From contig JALGQZ010000006.1 in NCBI GenBank assembly GCA_023105745.1, positions 34,551,686 through 34,615,685 on the forward strand: 64,000 bases of DNA. The letters are read 5' to 3'. Source of the DNA: Austropuccinia psidii. Taxonomy: Eukaryota > Basidiomycota > Pucciniomycetes > Pucciniales > Sphaerophragmiaceae. The notes under the pieces were generated by a model, which did no database searches, was not told the origin of the DNA, and was given only the letters and a program-made list of their open reading frames with translations. The position numbers were made by a program, and so were the translations under genes. How positions within the stretch are numbered: position 1 is the stretch's first letter; the number at the start of each line of letters is the position of its first letter. This document shows positions 6,091 to 52,892 of this stretch, piece after piece.

Positions 6091-6095
6091 TAACA

Positions 6096-12010: not shown

Positions 12011-12180
12011 TGTAGCTACACCAAAACTACACATCTTATGAGATAAAAAATCCCAAATATGATTTTTGTGAGTCCCATGTTTTTAGAAGCTCTATGGGGG
12101 CCCAAAGGTATTGGTAGGGGTCTGCTCTCTCTCATTTTTCCAAAAATAATGGAACAAGTTCCTGCTTTTGAGGATCACAA
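12011..12180 (+). repeat. LTR-D copy 2, first segment
   Basis: It matches the reverse complement of 53560-53730 in LTR-D copy 1: ACACCAAAACTACACATCT, a segment with GAAGCTCTATGGGGGCCC, then CTCATTTTTCCAA and ATGGAACAAGTTCC. It is interrupted at 12180 by the solo LTR-C and resumes at 13809. The first half of the LTR, upstream of 12011, is missing or too diverged to see. Confidence 0.75.
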
Positions 12181-13808
12181 TGTCACAACCACAAAGAATG
12201 ACCCTCGTCAATTGGTGTTGCCTCAAGCCCAGCCTGAAACCAAGTTGCGGCCAATTGGTCACACCATATCTTTTATGGCCCATTGGCCCCCTATGGTGCT
12301 CTATTGCCTTTTGGTCATAACACCTTTTTCCCTGGCCATATCCTGCCATCATTGGCCTCCTTGGCCAACTTTCATCTCACCAACCCCCAGGGCTTTATCT
12401 TTGTTTGGGGCCTGGGTTTCCTTTCAGTCTTCCAGGGGTCTATGGACCCTCTAGCCACCATCAGGCCTCTTGGCCCAACCCCTTATATTAAGAAGGTTTT
12501 GGGCTAAATGGCTTTTTGGGGGCCTTTAGGCCCTCTATGGACCACGGTCCATATGCCATGATCCACGGTCTGTGGGCCCTTTAGGCCCCTTCTGGGCTAG
12601 TCCAATGAGGCCAAAGCAGGCAGTCCACTAGCCCCCAAGGCCAGGTGGGTCCCAAACAACAAGTGGGCTTACCTGAGCCAGTTTGTGACCATGGACCCAA
12701 ATCCACCAATTTTGGCCAAGAAAACAAAAGGTCCCAATTTCCAACCAAGGACCACCAGTGGCCCATTTACAACCATGGCCTCTGGTAACCCCCAGAGGCC
12801 ACCATCTCAGCTCAAATTCACCCTTCCCCTCAACTCAAGGGGAATACTTCCCTTTCCTCCCTGCATCCTATACTCAAGGATGTGGGAGTGGTGCATATAT
12901 GGTATTATATACCATTATGCACCATTTTTGCTCAGAAATCCAATGGTGACGTTTTCAGGACCCAATTCCATGATCCCAAATCAAGTTCCCAAAATTCATC
13001 ACCATTTTTGAAGGATGACTCTTCAGCTCATCAGTCTGGCAATCCATGGTGGCTATCAGAAGACCATTTCAGGACCCCAACCACCTGGCCCTGCAGGAGT
13101 TGGGTTGGAAATTCTTTCAGAATTATAACAAGGGTCTTTCCCAGAGGTTATGCATCATTCAATCAGCTGTCAAGGCAGAAAGTACTTCAATACCCTGGAC
13201 AAATTAATTGGTTCATACAGGTAGCAATCAATCATACCTGTATGTCCTTGTCCCAATTGGGCCAATTCATACTCCACTGGGGGAATTCCATCACACAGTT
13301 CCATTTTCAATATGGCCATAATTGTATTGAACCAATTCAGAAAATACAGCCCAGTGATTCACCTTCCAGGATCAGCCTCTCAGTTTTTCACATATACTGG
13401 CAACCTTTCATCACCTGGGGACTTTCTCCCCAGTTAATTAATATATTGGATGTATTTTTATCCTTCTTTTATTTGACCTTATTAAGAGTAAATACTGATA
13501 ACCTTAAGTCAGTCATTTTCACATTTTCTTCTTTGCCTGTCAGTGGATATTGATGGTCATATCCTTTACCAATTCCATTCTTCTTTCTGGCAGGTTGAGA
13601 CAGTGAATTGAGGATTCATTTCGTTGCCTCGTTGGCTTTTGGCTTGTTGTTATCCTGGCCATTGGCTTCCTTTTTCTTTTATCTTTGGCATATTTGTCTT
13701 TACCCTTTTATTATTCTTTTAATAAATATATTCTTTTGGAGCCCTCCGAGTGAGTTCTTGATTCCTGAGTGCCAGGCTACTATTACTTTCATAAGAGCCC
13801 CTGTGACA
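12181..13808 (+). mobile_element. solo LTR-C with target-site duplication CACAA
   Basis: It starts TGTCACAACC and ends CCCCTGTGACA, so the termini form the inverted repeat TGTCACA/TGTGACA. It is flanked by CACAA at 12176-12180 and 13809-13813. The flanks on both sides continue the LTR-D sequence, which proves insertion. No internal region is present, so it is a solo LTR left by recombination between two LTRs. It is unusually GC-rich for this window, with many GGCC-containing words between 12280 and 12830. Open frames of up to 223 codons run through it, but they have no domain match and the inverted copy at 1729-3022 does not keep them open. Confidence 0.9.
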
Positions 13809-14135
13809 CACAACCATTCCTGAACTAGCAGGATATTTATTGTAGGCATAGCTTGTGAGTTGTGCAAATCTCATTAGTGTTTCTCAGTAGCTTAGTATTA
13901 TTGAAGAATAGGAGTTTAACTGTAGTGAAATTCCCTGTATCCTGGCTCAGTAGTTTATGATCAGTTAATAATAGGAGTATACCCATGGTGAAAAGCTCAG
14001 TGGCCTTTCTCAGTAGCTGAGTATTATTGAATAATAGTAGTAGTGCCATAATGAAGATCTCAGTAGTTTAGTATTATTGATGAACAGTTGTATAAGCATA
14101 GTGAAATGCTTGGTAGACTTTCTCAAGAGCTTAAT
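13809..14135 (+). repeat. LTR-D copy 2, second segment
   Basis: It continues LTR-D after the solo LTR-C. CCTGAACTAGCAGGATAT matches the complement of 53540-53560, followed by several diverged copies of a 65-75 base unit containing CTCAGTAGCTTAGTATTATT. The same internal tandem unit is present in LTR-D copy 1 (53400-53520). It ends at TTAAT (14131-14135), the TSD of the Gy1 element inserted here. Confidence 0.8.
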
Positions 14136-16029
14136 TGAAGATTTTTCTATGAAACTGTTGATAATAGTACTATTAATCAATAGTAATATAACTTTTATTA
14201 TGAAATATAATAATAAAAGTATTATAATGAAAATTAAATAATTGATTAATTAATTATATCTTTTACTTGATATACACTATTCGTTATTATAGCAGTAAGA
14301 AGTAATTTTATACAAGAATCAATTACAAGAAGTATTAAAAACTTCTTTATTAAGCTAATAAAATTAATTTAATATATAATTATCTTCTACAAGAGTAATT
14401 TTCAATACTATTCTTGAAGAAAACTATTACTAGAGAAAAAATTTAAGAATTAATAAAAAACCACTCACTGATACTACAATGAACCTAGAAAAAGTTTTCT
14501 AGAGGGATTTGATGGATAACATTGGATTTAGATGATAAAAAAATGATTTATAACAGTACTACAACAATATATAATTGATTTCTATGATTCCAAATCTTTC
14601 TGATTCATTCTCAAAAAATCAAAACATTCAAGAAAGCTTTTTGAGTAATACTTACTTGTTGGTAATAAAGGTATAATTGGATAATAAGATGATTTGGAAG
14701 AAACTGCGAGAGGAGGCCTCTTTTAAGTAAAAAACAGCTCACAGAGGCGTGCCATGGAGCAAACATAAAAAAAAGTGAGTGAGAAAACAACAATCCCTTT
14801 TGGATTAATAATTGAATCATCTGTTGTCATGTAAGATTATCATAATTACTTAATGGATCCTTTAATGTGACTACCAACCCAAATACGGTTAAGAATAAAA
14901 GGAGTAAGAACTTTAAATCTTCTTTTATTTAAAAATGAATATTGGTTTCTCAAAGTTATAGATTTTATTGGAAATTTCACCACAGGTTGTATTTTATGTG
15001 AGTTTTGAAAGATTCAGTGTTTCACATGGAATAATCAAAAATGGAATGTGGGTAAAACTCTTAATTTTACCTATGAAACTGTAATTCTCTTTGTTTTCTT
15101 TATGGAGAAGACTGTTCTCCATTGGTCTTGAAAGCTTTAAAATGATACATTTAGAACTGTATTTTTAATTAATTTTTGATGGTTTTACCTCATTTATACA
15201 TAGAATTGAAAATAGCACTCTATGACAGGTTTCAATGGGGTAAATCAATGGATTCTAGTCTAAAGATGGCTTTAATTCATTTTTTGAGGCTTATCCATGG
15301 AAAATGATAAATAATTGAGATGGTTGAAAGAGTCTAAGTAGCTCTTTACCTCCTTGGAAAGTCAAAATAGCAGCTGATTTGCAATTTCTTATGATTTAAT
15401 GAGATTTTAACTTGGTAACCCAGTTCCCAAAAGGTTTGAGTACAATAATTGGGCCATGATCAGCCTTGGATCTAAGCTTTAGAGCTATCCACATCTCAGA
15501 GGCCTCAGAAGTTTGGTACCCTGGCTCTCTTTGATGTCTTTTGTCCCCTCTAGCTATTTTCACATCAAAAAATAGAAATTCAGGTTTCAAGACTGATATC
15601 CACTATGGGTGTATCAAAACTGTACTTACAAATACCATGATATTAAGTGCCACAAACATGCACAAGACTATTATTAGTGTATATGTAATATGGGATTTCT
15701 CACATTCCTATTATTTTGGCATGAAATTGGGAAAAAAATTCAAAATTCTTCTATATGGTATTGAATTTTTTTCCATATCACCACTGCACAGAGTTCATTT
15801 AAGCTTATTCACTCTATGGAGCTACCCTAGCTGAAATTGGTGTGGAATCCAAATCTAGACTTAAATCCATGGATTTACTTACTTAATAGAAATCTATTCA
15901 TCTTTTCTGAAATCAAAGATGATGAGTTTCAAATGTATGAATGACTTATGGGTTATGCATAGTTCAAAAAGTATTCTTGAAGATAATTGTGGCCTATCTC
16001 AGTATGTAGAATATACCTTAAGGCTCACA
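14136..16029 (-). repeat. 3' LTR of Gy1-1
   Basis: It starts TGAAGATTTTTCTATGAAAC and ends CCTTAAGGCTCACA, giving 1894 bp. Immediately inside lies TTCCCTCCCACC, which on the element's strand is the purine-rich GGTGGGAGGGAA expected of a polypurine tract. It is about 30 bp longer than the 5' LTR. Confidence 0.85.
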
Positions 16030-16250
16030 TTCCCTCCCACCAAAAAATAAAATTTTACTACAATTTTATTAATGATATCAATAAAAAAAGGGCCCAAAGG
16101 GGGTTAATGTCCAATGTCCAACCTTTTTAGATTACTGGGAGCAATTAATTTAAATCATATTCACAGCTTTATTTGGGCTTGTGGCCTTCTTTCATGGCTA
16201 AATCTTTTCAAGAGCTTTTCTGAGTCAGGTATCTCCAATTCCGCCAGCCA

Positions 16251-16679
16251 TTAATCTCCATGTATGGGATTTTTATATCTGACAAGACATTCTCTTTGAT
16301 TTTTACACCTAAGTCTCCTTTCTTTAATTACTTTCTTTATCTTTTTTTCTTCACTCTGTTCCACTGGTGGTACAGTCAAAGGAGTTGGTTTCCTTAAAGG
16401 AAGCAATTCTTTATCAGCTGGTTGATAATGTTCTATCAAGATGACTGGAAAATCTGGATGTTTATTTTCTAATTCACCACTCAATTCCACTTGAACTGCA
16501 TTGGTTCCATGTAAGGAAGCAATAACAAAATGTCCTAAATAAGAATCTTTGAGCTTCTTTGGGCCTTTGATATTATTAAAATTGAAAGTTGAAACTAGAA
16601 CCAAGTCCACTAATTTGATGTTTGGTACTTTATGACTCTTGTCCCACTTCTGTTGTGCATAGTCAAAAGTGTCATTCAT
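16251..16679 (-). pseudogene. Gy1-1 integrase C-terminal domain and broken chromodomain
   Basis: A 142-codon frame reads from the end of the integrase (FDYAQQKWDKSHK, then LVLVSTFNFNNIKGPKKLKD) through a segment ending in FPVILIEHYQP, the position of the usual V-LL-PY block. It continues into KERRLRCKNQRECLVRYKNP, the start of a chromodomain. In Gy2 the same position continues with the conserved tryptophan segment DEWLLEKDI; here the frame stops first. The family role of this tail is to steer integration to chromatin marks. It is collinear with 22175-22606. Confidence 0.8.
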
Positions 16680-17502
16680 ACTTTTTTTTAATGATGTTTC
16701 ACTTTATCAATCATTATTTTGAAGCTTGAAGATGTAGCATGGATGTAAATCAAATCTTTCCTCAGTGATTCTGCTGGAAGTCTTGGGTTCCATCCTTTCT
16801 CCAACATAGCAGGAGTTTGGCCCATGGCAGAATGGAATGATGTCTTATATGCCAATTTTAATGCAGAAATTACAGTGCACCAGTTATGGGTAAAGCAATC
16901 TGAGTGTTTGAATTATAATCCATAAGCACAGAATCTGCTGATCATGTCCTCTAAAGCTTGATTCATTCTTTCTTCTAGCCCATTAGTTTGAGGGTTAAAT
17001 GTTATAGAAAATGATAACTTGGTCCCAAACAATTTCTGAAGATTAGTCCCAAGCAAGTGTTATAGCTTCTGTAACCACTTGGAGAAAGTGCTGTGACCCA
17101 ATCCATGTTAAAAACTCCTAAAGGAAATTTTGGTTCTTGAATATGAATCATTAGTCCAAATTTCTTACTTGTACCCCTGTTTGCTTTTCGGAATCTGTCA
17201 CAGGTATTGCAATATTCAATGTTTTCTTTTCTCCAAGATTTCCACCATGCACATTTTTTCACTTTTTCAAGTGTTCTGGATTCTGACAGGTGTCAGGAGT
17301 AGATGCTATCATGGCATTCATGAAGAATGGTATTGATAAACAATCTGATACACAATTTCATCACACAAGAATGTTTATTTCTGTGGTAAATTATTCCATC
17401 AAACAAGTGAAATTTTCCTTCATAATACAAATTTTTCCAAACTTCATCTAGTGAATTGACAAAAGATGTATGTTTGCAGTCTTTATCTAACAAGGAAGTC
17501 AA
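16680..17502 (-). pseudogene. Gy1-1 integrase zinc-binding and core domains, internally deleted
   Basis: Frames at 17293-17502 and 17002-17262 give the region before and across the H2C2 zinc finger (GIIYHRNKHSCVM, then EYCNTCDRFRKANRG) and the first catalytic aspartate in NMDWVTALSP. Just after NTCLGLIF the frame jumps to a segment equivalent to LFGTKLSFS. The part carrying the second catalytic aspartate (DRDPKF in Gy2) is therefore deleted. Beyond it come a decayed HPQTDG region and TFHSAMGQTPAM-like segments with stops. The enzyme cannot have been active after this deletion. Confidence 0.8.
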
Positions 17503-17520
17503 GATATGACAATTCTTGCC

Positions 17521-18130
17521 CTACTTATAAGATTCTCTGACTTCTTCAAAGAATTCAGTCTCAATATATGTTTTGTTCATTCCTTCAACTGGAATATGTG
17601 GTTCTGCTTCCAAAGGTACATAATCTGGATTATCAGAAGTATTGGTTAATGCCCACCTACTAAGCCCATCAGTATTTTTGTGAGATTTTCCTGCCTTATT
17701 AGCTATATTCATATTACTTCTATATTCTTGAATGAATCCTTGCCATCTCAACATATGTCATTTAGGATTTTTTGTGTTAAGAAGTGATTTCATGGCATTG
17801 CAGTCAGTTATCACTTCAAAAACACTTCCATAAAGATAATAGTGTAGTTTTTCAAGTGCCCATACCAAAACTAAGTACTGAATCTGGCTTGCACCATATG
17901 TGGATTCTTTTGGTTTGATTTGTCTTGCAATGTAACAAACTGGTCCATTTGTAGGCTTTTCATCAATAATTTGGACTTGATGTAGGTCTTCCCCTAATCT
18001 ACCTCCATATACATCAGTGTAAAATTTAAAAGGTATATTCCAGTTAGGCATGAGGAGTAAAGTCCTTTTGTAAGCGCTTTCCTTATCTTCTCTTAATATT
18101 TAATTCTTTCCTGTGTCATTTGAAATACTG
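17521..18130 (-). pseudogene. Gy1-1 RNase H domain remnant
   Basis: The frames at 17758-18051 and 17521-17754 contain NIPFKFYTDVYGGRLGEDLH, QIKPKESTYGASQIQYLVL, VITDCNAMKSLLN and [11 protein letters not shown]. These align with RNase H of Gy2, where the catalytic residues are D785, E830, D855 and D900 of the 23488-26523 frame. Here the catalytic glutamate of QMECL is replaced (QIQYL), and an in-frame stop separates the two parts at 17755-17757. Confidence 0.8.
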
Positions 18131-19073
18131 TCTGTTGATCACAGATTCTACAGAGTGATTTGGCTAGAATTGCAAATTATTTCACGGGTTGCCTGGAATG
18201 ACTGGAAAATCCAAGAAAAGAAATCATTCCTTTCGTATTCTGGGGTATTGTCTTAAGTAACACTGCTTCCACTTTATTTTTGTCAATACCCAAGCTTAAG
18301 CCGGAAACAATATGTCCTAAAGCTTTAAGTTCTTCAAGGCTGAAGTTACATCTCTTGAGTGAATGCTTCATATTCACTGATGCAAATTTTTCAAGTACTC
18401 TTACAAGTCTTTCAAGGTGCAAAGACCATGAATCAGAACATATTATAATATCATCAATATGAATGATAATCCATTGTTCAGATAATCCTTTGGGGAAGAT
18501 GGTATTCATCATTCTTTGATAATGAGATGGTGCATTTTTAATATCAATTGGCATTCTAAGATACTCATAAATGACACAGTGACTTATAATGCTAAGTAAT
18601 TTCTTAGCTTTGGGGGTGGATTTTATATACTTGGCTTTAGAAAATTGGGTAAAGGTTTTTTGGATTCTACGAATTGAATAGCTATCTGCAATTGTTTAGG
18701 TATTCAGTGCTCTGAAATATCCAACCATTCTAAATTTATCACTGTGTGAAGCCATAATAACAGGTGTTGTCACCTCAACTCCCTCATTATGGCCTACTTT
18801 CCTTAGTACACCTAGTTGGATCAACCCTTGGATATGTTTCTCCAAGGTTTCTCTAACTCTGTAACTGCCTGGATAAGATGGTTTTCTAAGTACTGGAGTG
18901 TATCTTCTGTCAATATTAAGAGTAATAACAACTTCATGCCCTTTAATAGTGTCTAATGGTTCATTAGCAGAAGCAAATGCATTTTTATATATGCACAACA
19001 CATTAATAAGCTCTTGCCTTATTCTGAGTGACAATGATGGATTTTTTTGTGCCTCCACAACTTGATCAGTCAC
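18131..19073 (-). pseudogene. Gy1-1 reverse transcriptase remnant
   Basis: The frame at 18696-19073 holds the N-terminal RT part ([51 protein letters not shown]). The frame at 18177-18554 holds the palm and thumb, with the active-site box IIHIDDIIICSD, KCNFSLEELKALGHIVSGLS and GMISFLGFSSHSRQ. Between them (18555-18695) the segment with the first catalytic aspartate is full of stops. It is homologous to residues 440-760 of the Gy2 polyprotein. Confidence 0.85.
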
Positions 19074-19084
19074 AAATATTTCCT

Positions 19085-19521
19085 TCTAAGTATCTTTCTT
19101 TGAAGATACTATTGATATTTGTTTGGGCATATTGGAAAAAGCAAATTTTTGCCTTTTATTTTCTCCAATTGTAAAATATCTGGCTCTATGGTTATTGATT
19201 TAAATACCATAAATATTCAAGTAATCTTTTCCAAGAATGATATGTTGAGATGTACAATTGTCCATCACTACTATATCTGTATTCATTTTCACACTTCCTT
19301 AAAGGTGTGTAAATACAATATTAATGTCCAGAATGCCAAAAGGTATATACATACTGGCAATACTAAGTCTTACAACTGCTATTGGTAATACATGTTTTTT
19401 CCATTCAGGAAGTATGGCAAGGAGGTAATCTTTGCCTACACAAGTGCAAAATGCTCCTGTGTCCATATTAACTTTGGCTTCAGTATTGATGTGATACAAG
19501 ATCCCCAGAAGGGTATCCTTT
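19085..19521 (-). pseudogene. Gy1-1 aspartic protease remnant
   Basis: The minus frame at 19299-19499 includes the protease active-site segment VNMDTGAFCTCVGKDYL (DTG intact), followed after a break by the equivalents of HIILGNDYL and NHKARYFTIG near 19140-19260. The frame is cut just upstream of the active site by the LTR-B inserted at 19522. Its other half resumes beyond 31571. The partly matching copy at 46020-46440 confirms that the join is collinear. Confidence 0.8.
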
Positions 19522-20030
19522 TGTCAGGCTGAGTATATGAAGAGGTGATAATAAATAGTATTTACAACATAAACTATGACTGTGACACATATAATCATGT
19601 TAAAAATGGGTTTTAATAAAATTAAAGGGCTTTACTAATGATTATAAGTGGTGGTGAGTGCTGATGAAAGCCCTGGGTGCAGCTTTACCCATTGGGTAAC
19701 AATACTAAAGTTTATAGTATAACCTGATTATTTTCCAAGAGTATAGCAGTTTTTGACAGTTGTACTATGTAGGAATTCAAGAGCAGGATGGGTATTCCTT
19801 TTATGGCAGTGAAAAGGCTTCTAGACCTTTTGACGTAGAGGAAGTGAAGATTGTTTACTCTCAAGGACAGGCTTGTGGTTTGAAAAAGGCCTGTAGAACC
19901 TTTATTGGGCTCAGATGTGGCTTTGAAACCACATCTTGGAAGTTTTAACCAATACAGGGTGAAGATTTTCATCTGGGGACCACACAGCCTGATTCTGACG
20001 TGTATAATGCGTAGAATGCTGTACAGAACC
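19522..20030 (-). repeat. LTR-B inserted in Gy1-1, first segment
   Basis: It begins TGTCAGGCTGAGTATATGAAG and follows LTR-B at 48984 through GTGGTGGTGAGTGCTGATGA, TATTTTCCAAGAGTATAGC and the CTTGTGGTTTGA block to GTACAGAACC. There it is split by Gy2-1 and resumes at 30726. It is flanked by CCTTT (19517-19521) and CCATT (31572-31576), a 5-bp TSD with one later change. Confidence 0.85.
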
Positions 20031-22056
20031 TGTAAGGTTTGACTATGAAACAATAAGTAAAAATTACTAATTTTTTACTTATTGTACTCTGAATGTCCTT
20101 ATAATTGAAATAAATAAGATTAAAATAATAATAATAATAGAGAAATATTATTATTATGGCGTAAAAATATTATATTATTAAATAAATATAATAATATAAT
20201 TAATATTATATGAAATTATAATATTATAAATAATATATTAATATAAAATAATTAATATATTATAAAGCTCTTTATTATTGTTACCAACAAATAATAAAGG
20301 CGTAAAAAACTGTTTTTTATAAATAAAAAACAATTAATAACAATAATATTACTAATATTAAAGTTATATATTAATATAAATACTATTTATATTAATTAAG
20401 AATTATTAAGAGTAATAATAAGAGAGAAATTATTATAATAAGATGAAATAACCTACTTTTAACACTTAGAATAATAATATTGAGATTTGTTACGCCAAAA
20501 GAATATAATACAACTTTTTCAAATTGTATTTACAATAAAAAATAAAGAAAATTACTAAATTTCTTGATTTTTACGTGGAAATGAGTTTATAGAGAGATTT
20601 ATAACAAAAACAATTAAAGAATTGATTTAATCACGTAAAAATGGTGATTAATATTAAGATGGTCTTTGGTCTTTAATAATATAAGAGTTTTATATATAAA
20701 GAATAAAGAAATTACCTTTTATTTAATTGATTTAATGTTTTTGATGCGTCTGAGGGGTAAATAGAGTAAAAAGAGCTCTATTTATAGTAAATACTTCCCT
20801 CCTAGAGTCCAACAGGCTTCTAGTAGACGTGAAATGATCATATCCACTGGAATTGATCAATATTTTAAGGTTTGAGGGTGATTACATCATGATCAAACCA
20901 TATTACATCATTATTACACCATTATTTAGAGTTATCACTATAACTCTAAGTTTGATGACATCAGAGGCTTGGCAGAACCCCAAATTTCGTGGATTTCATT
21001 AGTTTTAATCATAAACTAATAGTATTCACCAATTTTATCACTCTTAAGACTGTTAAACCTAAATTAAGGTTACAGTATGTGATAATAACAGCTCAAATGA
21101 AGCTCAAACTTTGATCCTCAATAACTTTTAAGATTTACATGCTACAGCAATTCAGAGAGTGAATTCTGATAGCCTGGCATAACCTTATTATGCTGCCAAG
21201 AGCCTTTCATTACATCATCAAAACTCTAATTTTGATGATTTTTCTTGTAACTCATCTTTTCTGTCGAAATTCAATATTTTAAACTTCAAACCTTGATTTC
21301 AGGGGGTTATACCCTGAATTTAATAATAAAAACTACATCATTCTTCACGAATGAACTAGTAGAATCCAACTGTATACTTTTTTTTAAGTTTGGAACACTT
21401 TCACAACAAAGTGGTCAACAGCTCTGTTGATTTTTATCAATAATTCATCATAGGTTTTAACCTTGTTTATAATTTGTAAAATAAAGTTCATATCTGTGTT
21501 CTTACAGTAATTATGTGGTAACTTTATTTTTGGTTCATCATTCTATCATGTATAGTTTAGAAGATATTAGCTATGATCCTTGAATATATGCGTTGACCAA
21601 AAAAGTGCATATATTCAGGATAATTCCTTAAGTATTAACATTGGGAATTAGCTTGTTAATTGTTTTATGTGTGGATTTTCATGGGGAATCCACTGGTACA
21701 ATTTATTCCACATGTTGTTTCATTAGTTCTTGAGATAAATGAGGTTTTATGGTTTCTATAAGGTATTATACCTTATAATTCCTTAAATATTGACTTTACA
21801 TATATGCCATAAAAATGGTATATGTGTATTTTTCCATGGGGAATCCAATGGTATAACTTATTTTACATGTTGATTCCTTGGCTTTTAAGTTAAACCATTT
21901 TTTGTACCAATTTATGGTATTTTTTGTATATTTAAGTAATTATTCTTAATGTATAATTATTCTAAGTAATTTTAATATAATTATATTAAAGGCATAATTA
22001 TTCTGAGTCTTTTTTGTGACCTTATTGGGTATGTGGTAATATCTCAAAGGCTCACA
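20031..22056 (-). repeat. 3' LTR of Gy2-1
   Basis: It is 2026 bp and extremely AT-rich in the half near 20031 (long TTATATTAATATAAA runs), less so toward 22056. It starts TGTAAGG and ends GGCTCACA. Short inverted motifs such as GATCAAACC near 20890 recur in the old fragment at 5640-6090. Confidence 0.9.
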
Positions 22057-22070
22057 TTCCCTACCACCAA
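22057..22070 (-). other. polypurine tract of Gy2-1
   Basis: Directly inside the 3' LTR the plus strand reads TTCCCTACCACCAA. On the coding strand this is TTGGTGGTAGGGAA, a purine-rich tract touching the LTR, which in this class primes plus-strand DNA synthesis. The same motif, slightly changed, borders the LTRs at 9540, 16029 and 50417. Confidence 0.7.
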
Positions 22071-22174
22071 AAAAGATTGTACCACAATCTGATATGTGTG
22101 ATTAGGGCATCATCCACTGTCCTACCTCTTCATTAGACTTTGTTAGTCTTGAAGCTCAATAATGCTTAACTTTT

Positions 22175-26523: not shown

Positions 26524-27290
26524 TTAATGTAATCTTTCAGTGATTAATTCATCTGGTATGGCATAGTCTTCTTGTAACATGTCAATTGTTTTAATAAATG
26601 ACATGTGGTCATATTCACCTTCTTCTGTGAATGTTGGCCATTCCTTCAATTGAGGTGCTTCTTTCATTAAGACTTGGTTGTTGTCTTGATGACTCAAGTC
26701 TGTTATGAAAGGATTTGACAATTCCTCTTTTGTTTTAACAGGGCTTCTTATATGAGAAAATGGTGTTGATAACTTTGGCATATTTAAATTAGCCTCATTA
26801 GTTTTATCCATTTTTTCAGTAATAAGCCTTATTTCACTCTGAATATCATCTTTCAGATGCATTCTTGCTTCATCACTTTTTTCCACATGGTCCAAAAGTA
26901 ATTTTTGGTGTGATGAAGTCTTTTCTTCAAATTTTTCTACAGAAATACTTAATTTATTTAATTTTTCTGTAAGATTGTCAATACTCATGTCATAATTGAT
27001 TGTCAAAGTCTTATCTTTGATATCTTTTATGTATTTATACAATTCTTGTTGTCCTTGTATTAATTTTTGAGTATTGTCAATTAGATTCTTTGGTTTATTA
27101 TTTTCAACAATAAACTTAATGTTGTCAATTTCTTTCTTGTTTTGCACAACAATTTTTGTTAAAGAAGATAAATTGTTATTTATTTCTTGTAGTGATAATA
27201 AACTATCTTTAATTTCTTTTAGAGGTAATATACTATTTTTAATTTCTGTTAAAGTATTTACAACATTTTTGGTCAAGGTTATTTCTTTGG
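26524..27290 (-). CDS. Gy2-1 Gag, middle part with coiled coil
   Basis: It is in the same frame as the polyprotein downstream and separated from it only by TAA at 26524-26526. Repeating segments such as LTEIKNSILPLKEIKDSLLS and SLTKIVVQNKKEIDNIKFIV have heptad-like spacing and suggest a coiled coil over about 130 residues. KEAPQLKEWPTFTEEGEYD and FIKTIDMLQEDYAIPDELI follow, matching the Gag of Gy1-2 (KLQEWPTFSGEVKY). An open frame continues upstream of 27290 to 27792, but comparison with Gy1 shows the Gag frame there is a different one (27279-27740), so this frame's upper third is not real coding sequence. Confidence 0.75.
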
Positions 27291-27740
27291 GAAATGAGGT
27301 TGTCTCATTCTTTGCTCTTCCTTGTCCTTGACTTCCATCAAGGTTCTGGCCATGTTGAAAACATTGTCCATGGCATCCTTTTGGATTCTTGGGATTCTGT
27401 AGCTTGGGGAATATGGTTTCTTCCAATGCTTTTTCTTGTTCTTCTTCCCTTCTTGGGGAAGTGGGTTGGCTTGAGGCTTGCTGATAGAGGCTACTGGGGC
27501 TTCTTCCTTGGTTGCCTTCCTCTTTTTGGCATGATAATCCTTGATTTTTTTGATTTGAGGTTTGGATGACAGTGGATTCCATCCATTGGAGTATTTCACT
27601 ATCTCCTCCTCTTTGAGGAACTTTTTCAGGATGTGCCAGGAGTTCATCACTCCTTGGTGTATTTGAGGCAGCATTTCCCAGTCTTTGTCCTTGTATACTG
27701 TGTAATACTGCTTGTACTGGCTCATGTAGATGTCTATTTG
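27279..27740 (-). CDS. Gy2-1 Gag, N-terminal part in a shifted frame
   Basis: The frame reads IDIYMSQYKQYYTVYKDKD, then QGVMNSWHILKKFLKEEE, then basic stretches (KKNKKKHWKKPYSPSYRIP) and VFNMARTLMEVKDKEEQRM. It matches the corresponding Gy1-2 segments (IYQSQYKTWYGEAKEEEWEI, and NWNRPYPQGY). Conservation of this frame and not the overlapping longer one identifies the true coding phase. It ends with TAA at 27279-27281. Joining to the middle part requires a frameshift or removal of a short segment near 27285. Confidence 0.75.
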   Translation of the reverse strand, partial: QIDIYMSQYKQYYTVYKDKDWEMLPQIHQGVMNSWHILKKFLKEEEIVKYSNGWNPLSSKPQIKKIKDYHAKKRKATKEEAPVASISKPQANPLPQEGKKNKKKHWKKPYSPSYRIPRIQKDAMDNVFNMARTLMEVKDKEEQRMRQPHFPKK

Positions 27741-27792
27741 AGCCCTCTGAATGTGATTTGTACCTATTTGAGTTACTCATACTTAGTTCCAA

Positions 27793-27972
27793 TTAAGGCT
27801 CAGATATCATGGGCCTTTCTGGGACTTGCCTTTGGGATAAGGCACTTCCTTGTGTGGATTCTGTTCCACTGGGGATATTGCCCTTTCTTTTCCCTTTTGA
27901 GGGATCAATTCTACCTCTGAGTCCAGTTCCATCTGATTGGATGGAGTATTGGGAACCTCTTCTGGTAGTCAT
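27793..27972 (-). CDS. Gy2-1 short N-terminal Gag frame (59 codons)
   Basis: It starts at ATG 27972 with MTTRRGSQYSIQSDG and stops at TAA 27793-27795. It corresponds to MVHTRNGRNYSVQPDG of Gy1-1 (about 33730-33550), which runs to SEPEL at the position where Gy2 has SEP and then the stop. The similarity marks it as the original start of Gag, probably cut off from the remainder by a mutation or by an unrecognised splice. Its small size would hide it from most gene finders. Confidence 0.6.
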   Translation of the reverse strand: MTTRRGSQYSIQSDGTGLRGRIDPSKGKRKGNIPSGTESTQGSALSQRQVPERPMISEP

Positions 27973-28003
27973 AATTTAAAGAATAAGAAAAAATAAAAGT
28001 ATT

Positions 28004-28213
28004 TTAGAATAAAATTCTTTTATGGCAATTTAAAAAGAGGTGCTCACCTTCAGAGTCTTGAATGGTGGGCCCTGGAAAGTCTAATTTCTTAGCTTTCTTT
28101 CTTTTGGTGATAACTGGTGTTGGAGAACTTTGACAAGTTTCTTCCACCAATCTCTCAACAGTAGCTTGGTTGTCTTCTGTTGGGTTATCTTCAAACACTA
28201 AAAAAGACAAATA
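28004..28213 (-). other. Gy2-1 leader exon with splice-like borders
   Basis: Upstream of Gag an open segment without an ATG reads FEDNPTEDNQATVERLVEET and later KRKKAKKLDFPGP. On the minus strand it is preceded by TTTGTCTTTTTTAG (a 3' splice site) just above 28213 and contains GAAG followed by GTGAGC (a 5' splice site) near 28046. The same arrangement occurs in Gy1-1 (33800-33965) and Gy1-2 (43467-43625), where the protein segments resemble each other. It may be a spliced 5' coding exon of the element. Confidence 0.5.
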
Positions 28214-28680
28214 AATATAAGTCTTTTTATAAGAAGTGTTATTTTTGGCAAGATATGGCAATTTTCCACGTAGAAATTGCTTTTATATCTTTGAAAAATT
28301 GAAATAAATAAAGAAATGAATAAAAATGAATAAAAATAACTTTTTTATTTGTTTTTAATATTTTTTAATATTTTTTATATATTTTTTATTTTTAAAGAAT
28401 AAGATAAAAAATGAATATGATTCTTATAAAATTAAATTATAATAAAAATTATTTTTAATTTATAAAATATCTCTTTTAATCACTAGAGTCACTCAAAGAA
28501 AGTTCTTGCAAGTCTAAGGATGTGAAAACCACGTGTAAGACAGTACAATTGCTTTCCAAATGCCTCAATAGCTTTTAAAATCAATAAAATATAAAATTAT
28601 TATATAATTTTATGATTACAAATATAATTTATTATTGGATAAACCCAAATAGAATCTTTTTAAAGGTCTTTTAAGTAAAT

Positions 28681-28698
28681 ATCACGGCCAGGCCCCCA
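28681..28698 (-). other. candidate primer-binding site of Gy2-1
   Basis: Two bases inside the 5' LTR the coding strand reads TGGGGGCCTGGCCGTGAT. It begins TGG, as expected for a sequence pairing with the CCA end of a tRNA. The two Gy1 copies carry TGGGGCCTGGC (34307-34321) and TGGGGGCCTGGCC (43083-43100) at the same place. I cannot name the tRNA. Confidence 0.6.
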
Positions 28699-28700
28699 AA

Positions 28701-30725
28701 TGTAAGGTTTGACTATGAAACAATAAGTAAAAATTACTAATTTTTTACTTATTGTACTCTGAATGTCCTTATAATTGAAATAAATAAGATTAAAATAATA
28801 ATAATAATAAAGAAATATTATTATTATGGCGTAAAAATATTATATTATTAAATAAATATAATAATATAATTAATATTATATGAAATTATAATATTATAAA
28901 TAATATATTAATATAAAATAATTAATACATTATAAAGCTCTTTATTATTGTTACCAACAAATAATAAAGGCGTAAAAAACTGTTTTTTATAAATAAAAAA
29001 CAATTAATAACAATAATATTACTAATATTAAAGTTATATATTAATATAAATACTATTTATATTAATTAAGAATTATTAAGAGTAATAATAAGAGAGAAAT
29101 TATTATAATAAGATGAAATAACCTACTTTTAACACTTAGAATAATAATATTGAGATTTTTTACGCCAAAAGAATATAATACAACTTTTTCAAATTGTATT
29201 TACAATAAAAAATAAAGAAAATTACTAAATTTCTTGATTTTTACGTGGAAATGAGTTTATAGAGAGATTTATAACAAAAACAATTAAAGAATTGATTTAA
29301 TCACGTAAAAATGGTGATTAATATTAAGATGGTCTTTGGTCTTTAATAATATAAGAGTTTTATATATAAAGAATAAAGAAATTACCTTTTATTTAATTGA
29401 TTTAATGTTTTTGATGCGTCTGAGCCGTAAATAGAGTAAAAAGAGCTCTATTTATAGTAAATACTTCCCTCCTAGAGTCCAACAGGCTTCTAGTAGACGT
29501 GTACTGATCATCCCACTGGAATTGATCAATATTTTAAGGTTTGAGGGTGATTACATCATGATCAAACCATATTACATCATTATTACACCATTATTTAGAG
29601 TTATCACTATAACTCTAAGTTTGATGACATCAGAGGCTTGGCAGAACCCCAAATTTCGTGGATTTTATTATTTTTAATCATAAACTAATAGTATTCACCA
29701 ATTTTATCACTCTTAAGACTGTTAAACTTAAATTAAGGTTACAGTATGTGATAATAACAGCTCAAATTAAGCTCAAACTTTGATCCTCAATAACTTTTAA
29801 GATTTACATGCTACAGCAATTCAGAGAGTGAATTCTGATAGCCTGGCATAACCTTATTATGCTGCCAAGAGTCTTTCATTACATCATCAAAACTCTAATT
29901 TTGATGAGTTTTCTTGTAACTCTTCTTTTCTGTCGAAATTCAATATTTTAAACTTCAAACCTTGATTTCAGGGGGTTATACCCTGAATTTAATAATAAAA
30001 ATTACATCATTCTTCACGAATGAACTAGTAGAATCCAACTGTATACTTTTTTTTAAGTTTGGAACACTTTCACAACAAAGTGGTCAACAGCTCTGTTGAT
30101 TTTTATCAATAATTCATCATAGGTTTTAACCTTGTTTATAATTTGTAAAATAAAGTTCATATCTGTGTTCTTACAGTAATTACGTGGTAACTTTATTTTT
30201 GGTTCATCATTCTATCATGTATAGTTTAGAAGATATTAGCTATGATCCTTGAATATATGCATTGACCAAAAAAGTGCATATATTCAGGATAATTCCTTAA
30301 GTATTAACATTGGGAATTAGCTTGTTAATTGTTTTATGTGTGGACTTTCATGGTGAATCCACTGGTACAATTTATTCCACATGTTGTTTCATTAGTTCTT
30401 GAGATAAATGAGGTTTTATGGTTTCTATAAGGTATTATACCTTATAATTCCTTAAATATTGACTTTACAGATATGCCATAAAAATGGTATATGTGTATTT
30501 TTCCATGGGGAATCCAATGGTATAACTTATTTTACATTTTGATTCCTCGGTTTTTAAGTTAAACCATTTTTTGTACCAATTTATGGTATTTTTTGTATAT
30601 TTAAGTAATTATTCTTAATGTATAATTATTCTAAGTAATTTTAATAGAATTATATTAAAGGTATAATTATTCTGAGTCTTTTTTGTGACCTTATTGGGTA
30701 TGTGGTCATATCTCAAAGGCTCACA
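28701..30725 (-). repeat. 5' LTR of Gy2-1
   Basis: It is 2025 bp and collinear with the 3' LTR at 20031-22056. The largest local difference is around 29500-29515 (GTGTACTGATCATCCCACTG here against GTGAAATGATCATATCCACT), which contains the one-base indel. As the 5' LTR it should contain the element's promoter. I do not single out a TATA box because the sequence is AT-rich throughout. Confidence 0.9.
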
Positions 30726-31571
30726 GAACCTGTATGGGACCCCATTATTGAATGAAATATGAGGTATTGAAGTAAAAACAAGCTTTTTTGTCTGTTTGAC
30801 ACTTCATAGTCATGGGTATGTGATATTATCCCATGGTAGGGCTGTATTGGCCAAACTGTGGGATTCTGACCTTAAAACAGCCATAAATTTGTCATTTTTT
30901 GAGATATCCTTCTCAGGATAGGTTCAGTGTGTATCCCTGTATGTGTTCTACACAATGGTTTCTCATTTGATATGGCTATCATCAAATATGGAAAAGTTAT
31001 GTCATGTACAAGAATTTTGTACATATTGGTGTTTTAGGCAAAAAGCTGTATTAGGCTTGTTTTCCTTATACCTTTGTTCTAGATAAGATATGGGGAAATT
31101 AATGGCACCATAAGATAGCCCTGATTCTGCTCTTTCCAAAAAGACCCCACTTTAGGTATCTCACTAAAACTGTAGGATCTAAATGAGAGGTGAATATTTT
31201 ATTCACCCTTAGTTGGCCTGATTTTGGCCATAACTTCTGTAATGCTGGTGCTAGCTCAGTTTGGCTGGTACCATTGGATAGCCCTGACTTAGAGATTCAT
31301 TTTAAATACCCATTTGATGGGTTTCAGCCTCTTGATATGTATTTCAGATGAGACCTGAGAATTAAGGTTTATGCTCAGCAACAGCTTTGTTATTCTTTGT
31401 CCTATGGTGATGGGACTTGTATATTTGGAAAGGCATGAGTTTCCTCTTTCTTTTGATACAATTCAAGCTGATTTGGCTCAGCTCCTTGTCGTGGTGGTAT
31501 CTTGACTATACCATTGATTTATTGTATTTGGCTGTCATAGCTGTTCTCTGGTTTTGAGTCACAGGCTGACA
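30726..31571 (-). repeat. LTR-B inserted in Gy1-1, second segment
   Basis: It resumes with GAACCTGTATGGGACC and follows LTR-B copy 48984-50417 to the terminus GAGTCACAGGCTGACA at 31571. Together with 19522-20030 it makes an LTR of about 1.35 kb, close to the 1.43-kb copy at 48984. Both ends are present with a TSD, and no LTR-B internal region lies nearby, so it is a solo LTR. Confidence 0.85.
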
Positions 31572-31576
31572 CCATT

Positions 31577-33756
31577 ACCTCTGGAAGGTTTAGTATTACA
31601 CATTCCGCAATCCTGGATGTTGTTCAGGTTACAGCAGTCCTCCCTATATTGTGGTAAGTGGGTATATAATTCTTTGAATTAAAAGGAACCTGTAATGTTC
31701 TCAATGGGATATTCTTCTATTGGTGTGTTGTCAGAGATTGCATAATCTTGGTCAGATTCTTCTTTATTTTAATCACATTAGACTTCTTGAATGACTTGAA
31801 TTCTATTGATTTTAGCCTGCTTGGTACAAGTATTGGCTTGATGTGAGGTTCTTCCACATTTATGACACTTTAAGACAGGTCTTTCAGGTCTTTTGTCTCC
31901 TCTGGAAATCTTTGGGATCATGTTGGACTCCATGGGATTTCTAGTCCAGGTTTTACCAATTCATGTCCTAGTAATGATATTTGCCATAGAATTAATGTAG
32001 TCCTCTGATGAACCAGGTTATACACATCTGCACTTGATATCATTCTGTAGTTCTCCTCCACATTTCATTAATATTTTCATATTTATCACTGAATCAGACA
32101 TATATGGGTGTAAAGCAGATAATCTGTCTTTCTTTTTGAGGAACCAAACAAGTGGTTTATCTTTTGCTGAGTTAAAAATGGAACTTTCAAAAGCAGTTTA
32201 CATTTTAAACCTCCAATAATTGTTTCCCCATTTGGTGATTACTTCAGATGTCTACCAAGGCCAATCATGTTTTCCATGAGCTTGTCTCATTTTGTAATAC
32301 CATTTCTTTGCAGTTCTGGAAAACAAGTAGTGCAATTTATCTACAATTATTTCATCAGGTATATTAAACTCGTCTTGAAACATATCAATTGTTCTTATGA
32401 ACTCAATATGATTTTACTTTCCTTCACCAGAGAATGTTGTCTATTCTGCTAATTTGGGAGTATCTTTTGCAGAGCTAGCATTTTCTACCAGAAAAGGGGT
32501 TAAAATTCCTTTAACAGAAAGATTCTTTTAAGTCAAAGGTGTGGAATGTTTTGGCATATGTGTATTTGGTTCATAATTTTTATGAATTTGTTCCACAGGT
32601 GAAATTATTTCATCTTTTAATTTCTGCCTTTCACTGTCACTTCTTCCCAAATGTATGGGAAATTGTTTGGTATTATTAACTACCCCTAAAACATGATTTC
32701 TCAGAATCTGAATCTGTTCATTAATGTTTGTAATGGAAAGATATTCCATTTCATCATCTTGGAATTGATATTTACTCTCAATTCGGTCACATGTATTGGA
32801 AATTCAATCACGTTTGGAAAATTTAGCCTTATGCCATTCAGCAGAATGACTTTCATTCTTTTTCAATTCAGTGATATCTAATGTTATTTTACTTACCTTT
32901 GCATTAATTTTACCAAGCTCTACAGTTATACTAGTTTTGACAAATTGTGTTTCTTGTATTATCTACATGGAAAAGTCCTATTAATTCTTTCCTGCTTCTT
33001 GGCTGTGAATTCCATAAGAGTCCTGGACATATTGAAGACGTTGTCCACTTCGGAAGGCTCTAATTTGGGGATCCTGTACCCCTGTGGGTAAGGTCTGTGC
33101 CAATTTGTTTTGGCTTTTCCCTTTCCTTGGTTTTTATTGGGACCTCTCTTCCTCTTCTGAGGTCCTTTGGGCTTGTCTTTGGAAATTTATGGAGCTGGTT
33201 TGGAGCTGGTAGACACCACTGGGCCTTCTTTCTCCAAAGCTGGAGTCATTTCCAATTTCTTCTTCTTGTCTATGGATAAAAGACTTTGGTCTTTCAACCA
33301 ATTCTTTATATTTGTGACCTTGTCTTTACAATAAAATAGGCTCCATCCTTCTCAGAGTTCTATGGTGTTCTCCTGACCCAGAAAGCTCCTGATGTCTAAG
33401 TAGGAGTTCATGGCCCCCTGCCAAAGGCTTGGGCATATTTCCCACTCCTCTTCCTTTGCTTCTCTGAACCAGTTTCCATACTGGGACTGATATATTTATA
33501 TTTCTGCCACTTGGAAATGGTTCAGCCTTTAAAATATTTCCTTAAATCAGTTCAGGTTCAGAGTTTACATCAAAGTTTGGGGGTACAGACCCTGGGGAAT
33601 GGGGGGCAACTCTGGCATCCCCCAGACATGTCTTTTGTGAGGAAGACTTGCCATATCTGTATTTGGTCTTTCCCCTCCCTTTTCCACATCCATCTGGCTG
33701 GACTGAATAGTTTCTTCCATTTCTGGTATGTACCATTTCCACTCAATCTTAAATAA
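31577..33756 (-). pseudogene. Gy1-1 Gag, decayed
   Basis: Read right to left: the N-terminus MVHTRNGRNYSVQPDG (about 33735), a segment like QYGNWFREAKEEEWEI, basic repeats and NWHRPYPQGYRIPKLEPSEV (about 33080), a coiled-coil region, and EYLSITNINEQIQILRNHVL (32750). A capsid-like region and an intact CCHC knuckle (CHKCGRTSHQANTC, about 31850) follow, then the approach to the protease. Many stops and frameshifts break it. The join to the protease at 19521 is restored when the LTR-B insertion is removed: the coding strand reads AACCTTCCAGAGG before and AAAGGATACCCTTCTGG after, matching the uninterrupted Gy1-2 copy at 46046-46072. The upstream leader segment lies at about 33800-33965 (VKIAKRGTLFRPEQAKQLPK). 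Confidence 0.85.
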
Positions 33757-34306
33757 AATGAAATATAAAGACAGAAAACACACCTTTTGGTAGTTGTTTG
33801 GCTTGTTCTGGTCTAAATAAAGTGCCCCTTTTGGCAATTTTTACTCCAATTCTTTCTTCAGATTGTGCTTCTGAACATTCTGGACTAATAATAAAGCGCT
33901 CACTGAGCCTATTACCAGTTGCCCTATATTTGACTAAAGACGCTAAGAAAACTGATAAAAGAAAGAGATTTATTCTTTTGTTACAATATTTTTAAGTTTT
34001 TTTATGATTTTTATTATTTTTTAATATAAAAAAATGATTTTTTTAAGGGGAAAGAATAAATATTCAAGAATTTGCACTTGAAATTGATTCATAGTAACTC
34101 AAAGAATAATGTTATAAGTTTTTGGATGTGAAAAAGCCATGTGTAAAAACAGTATTAAATGAAACCAAATTTGTCAATCAAAAAGATTTCAAAGACAATT
34201 TCAAAAAGAAAAATAAATTCAAATTCAAATTGACACAAAAAACTTATTAAATTAATATATTTTAGAGCTTAAAAATATATCAAATGAGGGTACAAGGTTC
34301 AAAAAA

Positions 34307-34321
34307 TGCAGCCAGGCCCCA
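34307..34321 (-). other. candidate primer-binding site of Gy1-1
   Basis: Two bases inside the 5' LTR, the coding strand reads TGGGGCCTGGCTGCA. It is one G shorter than the corresponding sites of Gy2-1 and Gy1-2, consistent with decay. Confidence 0.55.
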
Positions 34322-34323
34322 AA

Positions 34324-36187
34324 TGTAAAATTTGTCTATGAAACTTTTAATAATATTATATTTAATCAATAGTACTATCAATATTCATATGAAATATAAG
34401 AATAAAATTCTTAAAACCAAAGTTAAAGATTTAATTAATTATTTCTTTTACTTGTTATACAGTACTAGTGATTATAACAGTAAGAAGTAATTGTCTACAA
34501 GAACCAATTACAAGAAGTATTAAGAGCTTCTTTATTAAAAAAACAAAATTATGTTAATATATAATTATCTTCAACAAGAATAATTATAAATACCATTCTT
34601 GAAGAAAACTGTTACCAGAGAAAAAGTATAAAAATTAATAATAAACCACTCACTAATACTACAATGAACCTAGAAAGAGTTTGCTAGAGAGATTTGACGG
34701 ATAATTGTGGATTTAAATGATCAAAAGATGATTTATAACAGTGTTAATACAATATATAGTTTATTTCCATTATTTCACGTCTTTCTGATTGATTTTGAAA
34801 GAATTTAAACACTTACTAAAAGTTTTAACTAATACTTACTTGTTGGTAACAAAGATATCATTTAAAAATAAGATAATTTGGGAAAAAAAGCAAGAGGAGG
34901 CCTTTTTTAAGTCAAAAACACCTCACAGGGGCATGCCATGGAGAAAACTGAAAAACAAGTGAGTGATAAAACAGTAATCCTTTTTGGATTAATAATTGCA
35001 TCTTCTGTTGTCATGTAAGATTATCATCATTACTTAATAAATGCTTTTATGTGACTACCAACCAAATATGGTTGAGAATAAAAGGAGTAACAACTGTAAA
35101 TCTTCTTTTATTTCCAAATGAAAATTGACTTCCAAAATTTATCAATTTTATTTGAAATTTCCTCCCAGGTTTTATTTTCTGTGAATTTTTGTAGATTTGG
35201 TATTTCATGTGAAATCATCAAAAATGGATTGTAAGTAAAACTTTTCATTTTACTTATGAAACCATGATTTTTTTGGTTTCTTTCTGAGTAATACCATTCT
35301 CCATTGGTACTTAAGGCTGCAGAAAGACTCATTGTGAACTGTATTTTTAATGAATTTTTGGCTGGTTGCTATGTGGTAAATCAATGGATACTAGTCCAAA
35401 AAGGGTTTTAATTACTATTTTAAGTTTTATCCATGGTAAATCATTAAGAATTGACATGGTTACAGGATTCTAAGATGCTCTTTACCTCTTTTTCATGTCA
35501 AAATAGTAGCTTATTTGCAATTTTCTTATGATTCAATAAGATTTTAAATTTGTAACTAGGTTCCCAACAGTTTTTAGTATACTAATTGGGCCATGATAAG
35601 CCATAGATTGAATCTTTAGAGCTATCCATCCCTCAGAGGCCTCAGAAGTTGGGTACCCCAGCTCTCTTTCATCTCTTTCGTCCCCTCTAGCTATTTTCAC
35701 ATCAAAAAATAGAAATTCAGGCTTCAAGACTGATATCCACTATGAATGTATCAAAACTGTATGTAACAATACCATTATATTAAGTGCCACAAACAATAAT
35801 AACACTATTCTTAGTGTATATGTAACATAGGATGTCCCACATTCCCATTATTATGGTGTAAAATTGGGAAACACAAAAATCTTCACAATTCTTTTATGTG
35901 GCATTGATGATGTGGTATTGAAGTATTTTCAATATTACCACCTCATAGAGCTGATTTAGGCTTATTCACTCTTCAAAGCTACCCTAGGTGAAATTTTATG
36001 GAGAATCCAAATCTGGCCTTAAATCCATGTATTTACTTACTCAAGAAGATGTTATGCATCTTTCCTGAATCTAAAAATGATGAATTTTGAATATATGCAT
36101 GACTTATGTGTTATGCATAGTTCAAAAAGTATTCTTTAAGATAATTGTGCCCTATTTGAGTATGCAAAATATACCTCAAGGCTCACA
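34324..36187 (-). repeat. 5' LTR of Gy1-1
   Basis: It starts TGTAAAATTTGTCTATGAAAC and ends CCTCAAGGCTCACA, 1864 bp. It is collinear with 14136-16029 but clearly diverged (compare the two ends), which marks an old insertion. The base following is TSD TTAAT. Confidence 0.88.
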
Positions 36188-36625
36188 TTAATGTTATTAT
36201 CAAAATTGAGTAGTGATATAATCCTAGTATTGAAAAATGATTCTTGAAGAATTAATATGAATATCAAGTTCCATACTCTTATCAATAGTATTCATATGAA
36301 ACATATAATCATTATCAAAAATAAGACACTCAAAAAAGAAAAAAGAGAAATCCTTTTATATTCTTATTCAAATAAAATAAAATAGTAGTCATTGATAGGT
36401 CCTATCCAAAGACTAATGATAATTCTCCTCTTTCTGTTAAAACCACAAATGTTATCTTATTTTGTAATTTTCCATAGGCTGGCTATTAAATATTGTTTTG
36501 AGGGGAACCTAACACACCTAAGAACCCATGGTTTTTGGACAGTTCTGAAATTCAAAAAAGACTTATGAAATTTCTCCCTCAGGTTACTTGCTTAATTCAT
36601 CCCACAGAATGAAGTTGTTCTGTTG
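36188..36625 (+). repeat. LTR-D copy 2, third segment
   Basis: It continues LTR-D after Gy1-1: GTTATTATC, GAGTAGTGATATAATCC, then TTATCTTATTTTGTAATTTTCC, a segment with GGGGAACCTAACACACCTAA, and AATTCATCCCACAG near the end. These follow the complement of 52893-53350 in LTR-D copy 1. The end at about 36625 is approximate, because the terminal TTCCCACA seen in copy 1 has decayed. Confidence 0.75.
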
Positions 36626-43032: not shown

Positions 43033-43082
43033 CACTGATTAATAGTAACATTATCATCAGCTTCATAGAAAAATCTTCCATT

Positions 43083-45840: not shown

Positions 45841-46020
45841 GAAGAGGTTTAGAGTTCTGAAGAAAAATAATAATCTGACTAAGATTCTGCAGTCTCTGAT
45901 AACACACCAGTAGAAGACTATTCTTTTGAGAACATTACAGCTTTCTTTTAAGTCACTTAAGTCCATACTCTCTTAACACATTATAGTGAAGATTGTTATA
46001 ACATAATCAATATACAGGAT

Positions 46021-52312: not shown

Positions 52313-52319
52313 CATTATT

Positions 52320-52890: not shown

Positions 52891-52892
52891 GA

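What the first reader, a model, noticed from the sequence alone, without database searches (positions are those of the whole stretch)
12011..36625. Insertion stack four levels deep, each step dated by a target-site duplication
LTR-D copy 2 contains a solo LTR-C (TSD CACAA) and Gy1-1 (TSD TTAAT). Gy1-1 contains a solo LTR-B (TSD CCTTT/CCATT). LTR-B contains Gy2-1 (TSD GAACC). Removing each insertion restores a sequence present uninterrupted elsewhere in the window: LTR-D at 52893-54159, the Gag-protease join at 46046-46072, LTR-B at 48984-50417. The order also agrees with LTR divergence: Gy1-1 LTRs are clearly diverged, Gy2-1 LTRs nearly identical. This gives a relative clock for four families at one place.
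Basis: seen in the sequence. Interest (0 to 1): 0.8.

Follow-up and report, generated by a model that had tools for sequence, protein, structure and literature searches.

The report
Nested retrotransposons, youngest born CpG-free
A stretch of what is very probably the myrtle rust genome holds jumping elements inserted one inside another four levels deep, which is real but ordinary, while the youngest of them is unusual in carrying no CpG pairs at all in its protein-coding body although its own ends still have them.

Summary
The stack is real. All four insertions have 5-bp target-site duplications at base precision (three perfect, one 4/5), and each pair of flanks rejoins on an uninterrupted copy elsewhere in the window. 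LTR divergence agrees with the nesting: Gy1-1 K2P 0.198, Gy2-1 0.0135. The host is very probably Austropuccinia psidii or a close relative, where Gypsy bursts are published, so the stack is an ordinary nested LTR-retrotransposon array.

Limits: the outermost piece (D2) is truncated with no duplication found. C and Gy1-1 are siblings in D2, so their order is unknown. Only two steps have an LTR pair to date.

Following the clock gave a less ordinary point. Gy2-1 is young, yet its body 22057-28268 has 0 CpG (194 expected; GpC normal) and 0 CGN among 40 Arg codons. Its own LTRs share 10 CpG sites; 4 more differ between them. Decay after insertion therefore cannot explain the body: the element arrived CpG-free. 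The published account for this fungus is bursts first, deamination later. Drift under methylation or selected escape is open. The whole genome could not be reached; this rests on one young copy.

The parts
12011..36625 (.). D2, outermost host: D-family LTR-like fragment in three pieces (about 12011-12180, 13814-14135, 36193-36625), inverted to the reference 52893-54159; truncated at its left end, no duplication found
12181..13808 (+). C, solo-LTR-like element (ends TGTCACA...TGTGACA) with duplication CACAA; strand inferred from an AATAAA-like stretch near its right end; second partial copy 1728-2664 inverted
14136..36187 (-). Gy1-1, old Ty3/Gypsy element with duplication TTAAT; LTRs 14136-16029 and 34324-36187
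19522..31571 (-). LTR-B (19522-20030 and 30731-31571) alone in Gy1-1, between the gag side and the reverse-transcriptase side; duplication CCTTT/CCATT; strand inferred from the B element at 48984
20031..30725 (-). Gy2-1, young Ty3/Gypsy element with duplication GAACC; LTRs 20031-22056 and 28701-30725
22057..28268 (-). CpG-free body of Gy2-1: 0 CpG, 194 expected; lies within the longest CpG-free run of the window (21591-28269)
23488..26523 (-). Open frame with CCHC knuckle, reverse transcriptase, RNase H; 0 CpG of 89.9 expected
26524..27792 (-). Gag-side open frame, in frame with the pol frame and parted from it by one stop; 0 CpG of 35.2 expected
45904..46213 (+). Uninterrupted Gy1-2 sequence at the LTR-B insertion site
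48984..50417 (-). LTR-B reference, beside the integrase end of a truncated minus-strand Gypsy element (matches from 50462; weak pol match to 52313); uninterrupted at the Gy2-1 site
6103..7125 (-). Second LTR-B copy, truncated at its left but uninterrupted at the Gy2-1 site; strand inferred as for LTR-B
52893..54159 (-). D reference, uninterrupted at the C and Gy1-1 sites; no flanking duplication; strand inferred from a primer-binding-site-like stretch at its left

Best explanation
Successive integrase-made insertions of LTR retrotransposons, each cutting target DNA with a 5-bp stagger: a D element; then, in unknown order, C and Gy1-1 into its remnant; a B element into Gy1-1; and a recent Gy2-1 into the B LTR. 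C and B were reduced to single LTRs, most likely by recombination between their own two LTRs (inferred). The order and the duplications are shown; the recombination is inferred from the anatomy. Gy2-1 came from a lineage whose coding body had already lost every CpG while its LTR and leader kept some. That the loss predates insertion is shown here for one copy; its cause (deamination of methylated CpG in a long-lived active lineage, with or without selection) is inferred.
For: Four duplications; restored sites; K2P 0.198 against 0.0135; among four Gy1-type LTR copies the two Gy1-1 LTRs group together by 10 sites against 1 and 1, in 272 gap-free columns; Gypsy domains; relatives in A. psidii MF-1. 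CpG: body 0 of 194.0 expected, GpC 182 of 194.0; Arg codons 0 CGN, 40 AGR; codon-boundary CpG 0 against 41.0 +- 4.8 in 1,000 synonymous shuffles; LTR CpG sites 10 shared, 1 in the left copy only, 3 in the right only.
Against: D2 has no duplication and lacks one end. Empty alleles in another strain or haplotype could not be seen: the genome search was unreachable in 9 of 9 tries. No full-length C element was seen in the window. The CpG claim rests on one young copy; published genome-wide averages run the other way, with younger families having more CpG (PMC8063080, PMC12774611).
Confidence: 0.93

Rival explanations
1. The stack is an assembly misjoin of unrelated repeat copies.
For: Repeats of this kind are prone to misassembly; no reads could be inspected.
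Against: All four junction pairs carry matching 5-bp duplications (one with a mismatch) and rejoin on uninterrupted copies.
Confidence: 0.03
2. Gy1-1's two LTRs do not belong to one insertion but were brought together by recombination between elements.
For: At 82.7% they are little closer to each other than to a third LTR at 41129-43032 (80.2% and 81.0%).
Against: Perfect TTAAT duplication; site patterns 10 against 1 and 1 for pairing them, on the first 300-odd bases only.
Confidence: 0.05
3. The CpG-free body of Gy2-1 is decay after insertion by deamination, as published for this genome in general.
For: The Gy2 LTR pair shows CpG changes (3 of deamination type and 1 other among 14 CpG sites, against 27 substitutions over 2025 sites in all), and TpG+CpA is in excess in the interior (1.26).
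Against: LTRs of the same insertion keep 10 of 14 CpG sites in both copies; the upper 95% limit of CpG loss per copy is 0.30, so losing all of even 40 CpGs has a chance near 1e-21. Arg to C/H/Q/W/stop against A. psidii proteins is 41 of 2370 against 23 of 2151 in reverse; these counts overlap because many proteins cover the same residues.
Confidence: 0.03
4. The body is CpG-free only through codon bias or translation needs of the host, not methylation.
For: Coding sequence is affected and LTR much less so.
Against: A distant Gypsy-like integrase frame in the window (61553-62026) uses 9 CGN and 1 AGR codons and has 20 CpG of 23.8 expected. TpG+CpA excess in the Gy2-1 interior points to deamination.
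Confidence: 0.1

Closest known systems
Nested LTR retrotransposons of maize intergenic DNA (SanMiguel 1996, seen only as a citation; passages of PMC2773423 seen)
   Same: LTR elements inserted in one another, oldest at the base
   Different: A fungus; two levels are single LTRs; A+T-rich and CpG-poor
Gypsy bursts of Austropuccinia psidii (PMC8063080, passages and section 26 read)
   Same: Gypsy dominance, a burst near 78% family identity, GC 33.8% (window 33.9%), CpG depletion without RIP
   Different: There CpG loss is placed after the bursts; here the young copy arrived with a CpG-free body
Helenus, tRNA-bearing TRIM of rusts (PMC10886601, passages seen), for the 235-bp element at 44391-44625 outside the stack
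   Same: LTR-like unit with tRNA-like sequence, 5-bp duplication, rust host
   Different: Only one LTR here; no PBS or PPT to test

Membership tests
Ty3/Gypsy LTR retrotransposon (Gy2-1) | Reverse transcriptase and RNase H | tested here: met
   RVT_1 2.4e-22, RT_RNaseH 1.4e-27; best solved relative is Ty3
Ty3/Gypsy LTR retrotransposon (Gy2-1) | Integrase downstream of RNase H | tested here: met
   Relatives that carry integrase-region Pfam domains (P0004, P0117) align over 22184-25545, with stops and a frame change
Ty3/Gypsy LTR retrotransposon (Gy2-1) | Paired LTRs with TG...CA ends and short duplication | tested here: met
   20031-22056 and 28701-30725, GAACC
Ty3/Gypsy LTR retrotransposon (Gy2-1) | Primer-binding site and polypurine tract | tested here: inconclusive
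   G-rich stretches stand beside the LTRs where expected; no matching tRNA was sought
Solo LTR (B in Gy1-1) | Single LTR with duplication, family with internal sequence elsewhere | tested here: met
   CCTTT/CCATT; Gypsy integrase sequence beside LTR-B from 50462
Solo LTR (C in D2) | Single LTR with duplication, family with internal sequence elsewhere | tested here: inconclusive
   CACAA and TG...CA ends met; no internal sequence seen for this family
Solo LTR (D2) | Duplication at both ends | tested here: not met
   Truncated, no duplication
RIP-mutated repeats | Composite RIP index above 0 | tested here: not met
   -0.17 to -1.19 in 8 element segments, -0.69 for the window

The most novel reading that the evidence does not exclude
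Active Gypsy lineages of this rust were selected to shed CpG from their coding body, which makes that part invisible to CpG methylation, before they amplified. The genome-wide CpG loss would then be partly a property of the invaders at birth and not only decay afterwards. Gy2-1's body (0 of 194 expected) lies below even old dead Gy1 bodies (25 of 359 expected; p = 2.6e-5), as selection would give. Stronger methylation of young copies would give this too, and the old B interior (1 of 79) is about as low.
Probability: 0.25. Interest if true: 0.65.

Novelty: new member of a known kind. Interest (0 to 1): 0.38.

Why it matters
The stack gives a clean order of insertion in a gigabase fungal genome, but of a kind known since maize. 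The CpG result bears on how very large fungal genomes came to tolerate their elements. If young elements arrive CpG-free, CpG methylation cannot mark their bodies, and CpG content cannot serve as an age mark for them. It is directly testable on public assemblies that carry 5mC calls.

Tried and rejected
Tried without result: the window's own genome (genome search, unreachable 9 of 9); viral contigs for relatives of the Gy2-1 pol frame (1 stretch matched a pattern, 0 confirmed); a coding reading of element C (254-codon open frame 12789-13550): no Pfam match at E 0.1, and the second copy shows stops in that frame's counterpart. RIP was rejected by index. ARAGORN with the bacterial code found no tRNA, while Rfam found one tRNA-like sequence.

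Results against my reading. The excess of TG/CA discordance in LTR pairs (Gy1 L/R and B solo/ref: 14, against 18 over six control classes) compared with Gy1 coding segments a+b (7 against 27) is not significant, Fisher p = 0.064; the class CG-TA was left out of the controls. Pairs not used in that test: Gy1 segment c (leader and gag start, 7 TG/CA against 12 control changes), B 6kb/ref (3 against 8), C/Cx (1 against 6, so no excess in this LTR-like family), LTR L/X (7) and R/X (7), and the Gy2 pair (0). The old B interior is about as CpG-poor as Gy2-1. The excess of T-involving differences between the Gy2 LTRs (19 of 23, p = 0.0026) is not seen in the Gy1 trio and may be chance. My first count of changed LTR CpGs left out one non-deamination change; one search gives 4 differing sites, not 3. 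One search used 187 rather than 194 as the Gy2 expectation in its binomial test; one search repeats it with 194. One search stopped on a parsing error and was rerun; one search failed on an import error and was rerun.

Full report
Where it is. The window is 66% A+T and full of repeats. The open frame 23488-26523 (-) has its best relatives in Austropuccinia psidii MF-1, at 81-89% identity among the first seven rows. Two frames from 55-59 kb do so too. The window's GC of 33.9% is close to the 33.8% published for that genome (PMC8063080, passages). The host is therefore very probably A. psidii or a near relative; the record itself was not seen.

The stack. Self-comparison and junction reading give: D2 holding C (12181-13808, CACAA) and Gy1-1 (14136-36187, TTAAT); Gy1-1 holding LTR-B (19522-31571, CCTTT/CCATT); LTR-B holding Gy2-1 (20031-30725, GAACC). 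Random 5-mer pairs of the window agree fully in 0.18% of 200,000 draws. With one copy of the duplication dropped, the joined flanks align across the join on the D reference, on Gy1-2 and on LTR-B, at 79.7-83.2% identity, and for Gy2-1 on a second LTR-B at 6120-6413, at 78.6%. For B, the uninterrupted Gy1-2 copy shows CCTTT, so the right-hand copy CCATT is the mutated one.

Age. The Gy1-1 LTRs differ by K2P 0.198 and the Gy2-1 LTRs by 0.0135. With the rate 1.05e-9 used for rusts in PMC12210899 (section 16 read) these would be 94 and 6.4 million years; with 1e-8 (assumed) 9.9 and 0.7. Absolute dates are thus loose; the order is not. The Gy1-1 LTRs are only slightly closer to each other than to a third LTR at 41129-43032, but in a four-copy comparison over their first 300-odd bases they pair by 10 sites against 1 and 1. 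That agrees with a burst in which many copies are of like age; PMC8063080 reports one near 78% family identity.

D2 is a truncated piece without a duplication. C is not ordered against Gy1-1. The moment when B lost its interior is not ordered against Gy2-1. LTR-B at 48984-50417 stands beside the integrase end of a truncated minus-strand Gypsy element (matches from 50462 to 51835, and a weak pol match to 52313); LTR-B's left end abuts Gy1-2 sequence.

State of the elements. Gy2-1 has two stops in its gag side, two in its integrase side and a frame change near 22.66 kb; it is young but broken. Gy1-1 and Gy1-2 hold many stops: 16 and 19 in their longest alignments.

CpG. Testing whether deamination distorts the clock led to the less expected result. 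The body of Gy2-1 (22057-28268) has 0 CpG where 194.0 are expected, and 182 GpC of 194.0. Its pol frame has 0 CGN of 40 Arg codons, 0 NCG of 184 Ser(TCN)/Pro/Thr/Ala codons, and 0 codon-boundary CpG against 41.0 +- 4.8. Its LTRs have 11 and 13 of about 30 expected: 10 sites are shared, 1 is in the left copy only, 3 in the right only; 3 of these 4 differences are of deamination type. CpGs in the 5' leader are 3 of 4.1 expected. Since the LTRs have aged exactly as long as the body, the body must have been empty of CpG on arrival. TpG+CpA is in excess in the interior (1.26) and hardly in the LTRs (1.07 and 1.06), which points to past deamination in the lineage.

Older family. If Gy1 had carried a full load of CpG at insertion (about 111 in segments a+b), about half of the sites lost in both copies should now read TG in one copy and CA in the other. 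7 are seen, against a background of 4.5, giving an upper limit of about 17 ancestral CpGs lost in both. LTR pairs of Gy1 and B show 14 against a background of 3. The contrast is suggestive only, p = 0.064. Segment c, with the leader, was counted apart (7), and the C family shows no excess (1).

Control. A distant Gypsy-like integrase frame at 61553-62026 uses 9 CGN and 1 AGR codons and holds 20 CpG of 23.8 expected. A second open frame at 62184-62576 (5 CGN, 2 AGR, 13 CpG of 21.0) is not in the frame of the integrase match and may not be coding. CGN codons are thus usable here, and not every Gypsy sequence is CpG-free.

Against what is known. PMC8063080 (section 26 read) and PMC12774611 (section 20 read) hold that TE bursts were followed by deamination, with younger families richer in CpG; the correlations reported in PMC12774611 are r = 0.18 (GC) and 0.12 (CpG). 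One young copy does not overturn that, but it shows that CpG loss can precede insertion. Searches for CpG-free, CpG-depleted or methylation-evading transposons (listings only) showed no title or abstract start that describes this; the library lacks most subscription journals.

Verdict. A sound observation and an ordinary kind of structure, with one open side question worth a genome-wide count.

Noticed in passing
44391-44625: 235-bp single LTR-like element with a tRNA-like sequence (44434-44506, -, 41.5 bits) and perfect duplication CAGAA inside Gy1-2; fits a solo LTR of the Helenus group.
   Followed up: partly
21591-28269: Longest CpG-free run of the window; covers the Gy2-1 body and the adjoining part of its 3' LTR.
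   Followed up: yes
50481-53705: Second longest CpG-free run (106 expected) over the old B interior and the left part of the D reference.
   Followed up: no
14136-36187 and 20031-30725: Transversions are about as common as transitions between copies of one family (ts/tv 0.70-1.08, 0.93 in the young pair); G>T and C>A are about as frequent per base as C>T in the Gy1 LTR trio, so deamination alone does not make the A+T richness.
   Followed up: partly
41129-43080: Gy1-type LTR with no duplication seen abuts 45 bp of an inverted Gy1-2 LTR; a similar inverted LTR arrangement stands at 1-488.
   Followed up: no
5673-7125: An inverted Gy2-type LTR fragment directly abuts a truncated LTR-B.
   Followed up: no
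55325-59266: Remains of what looks like a DNA transposon: frame at 55325 with relatives bearing Transposase_21 (tnp2), and a companion frame at 58757 (-); relatives of both have neighbouring locus numbers in A. psidii MF-1 in at least 3 cases.
   Followed up: partly
61379-62404: Distant Gypsy integrase remnant (28% identity); the kilobases 61001-64000 have much higher CpG (0.61-0.76 of expected) than the rest of the window except 20001-21000 (0.81, few expected).
   Followed up: partly
9498-11047: Gy1-like fragment with integrase end and LTR start but nothing between.
   Followed up: no
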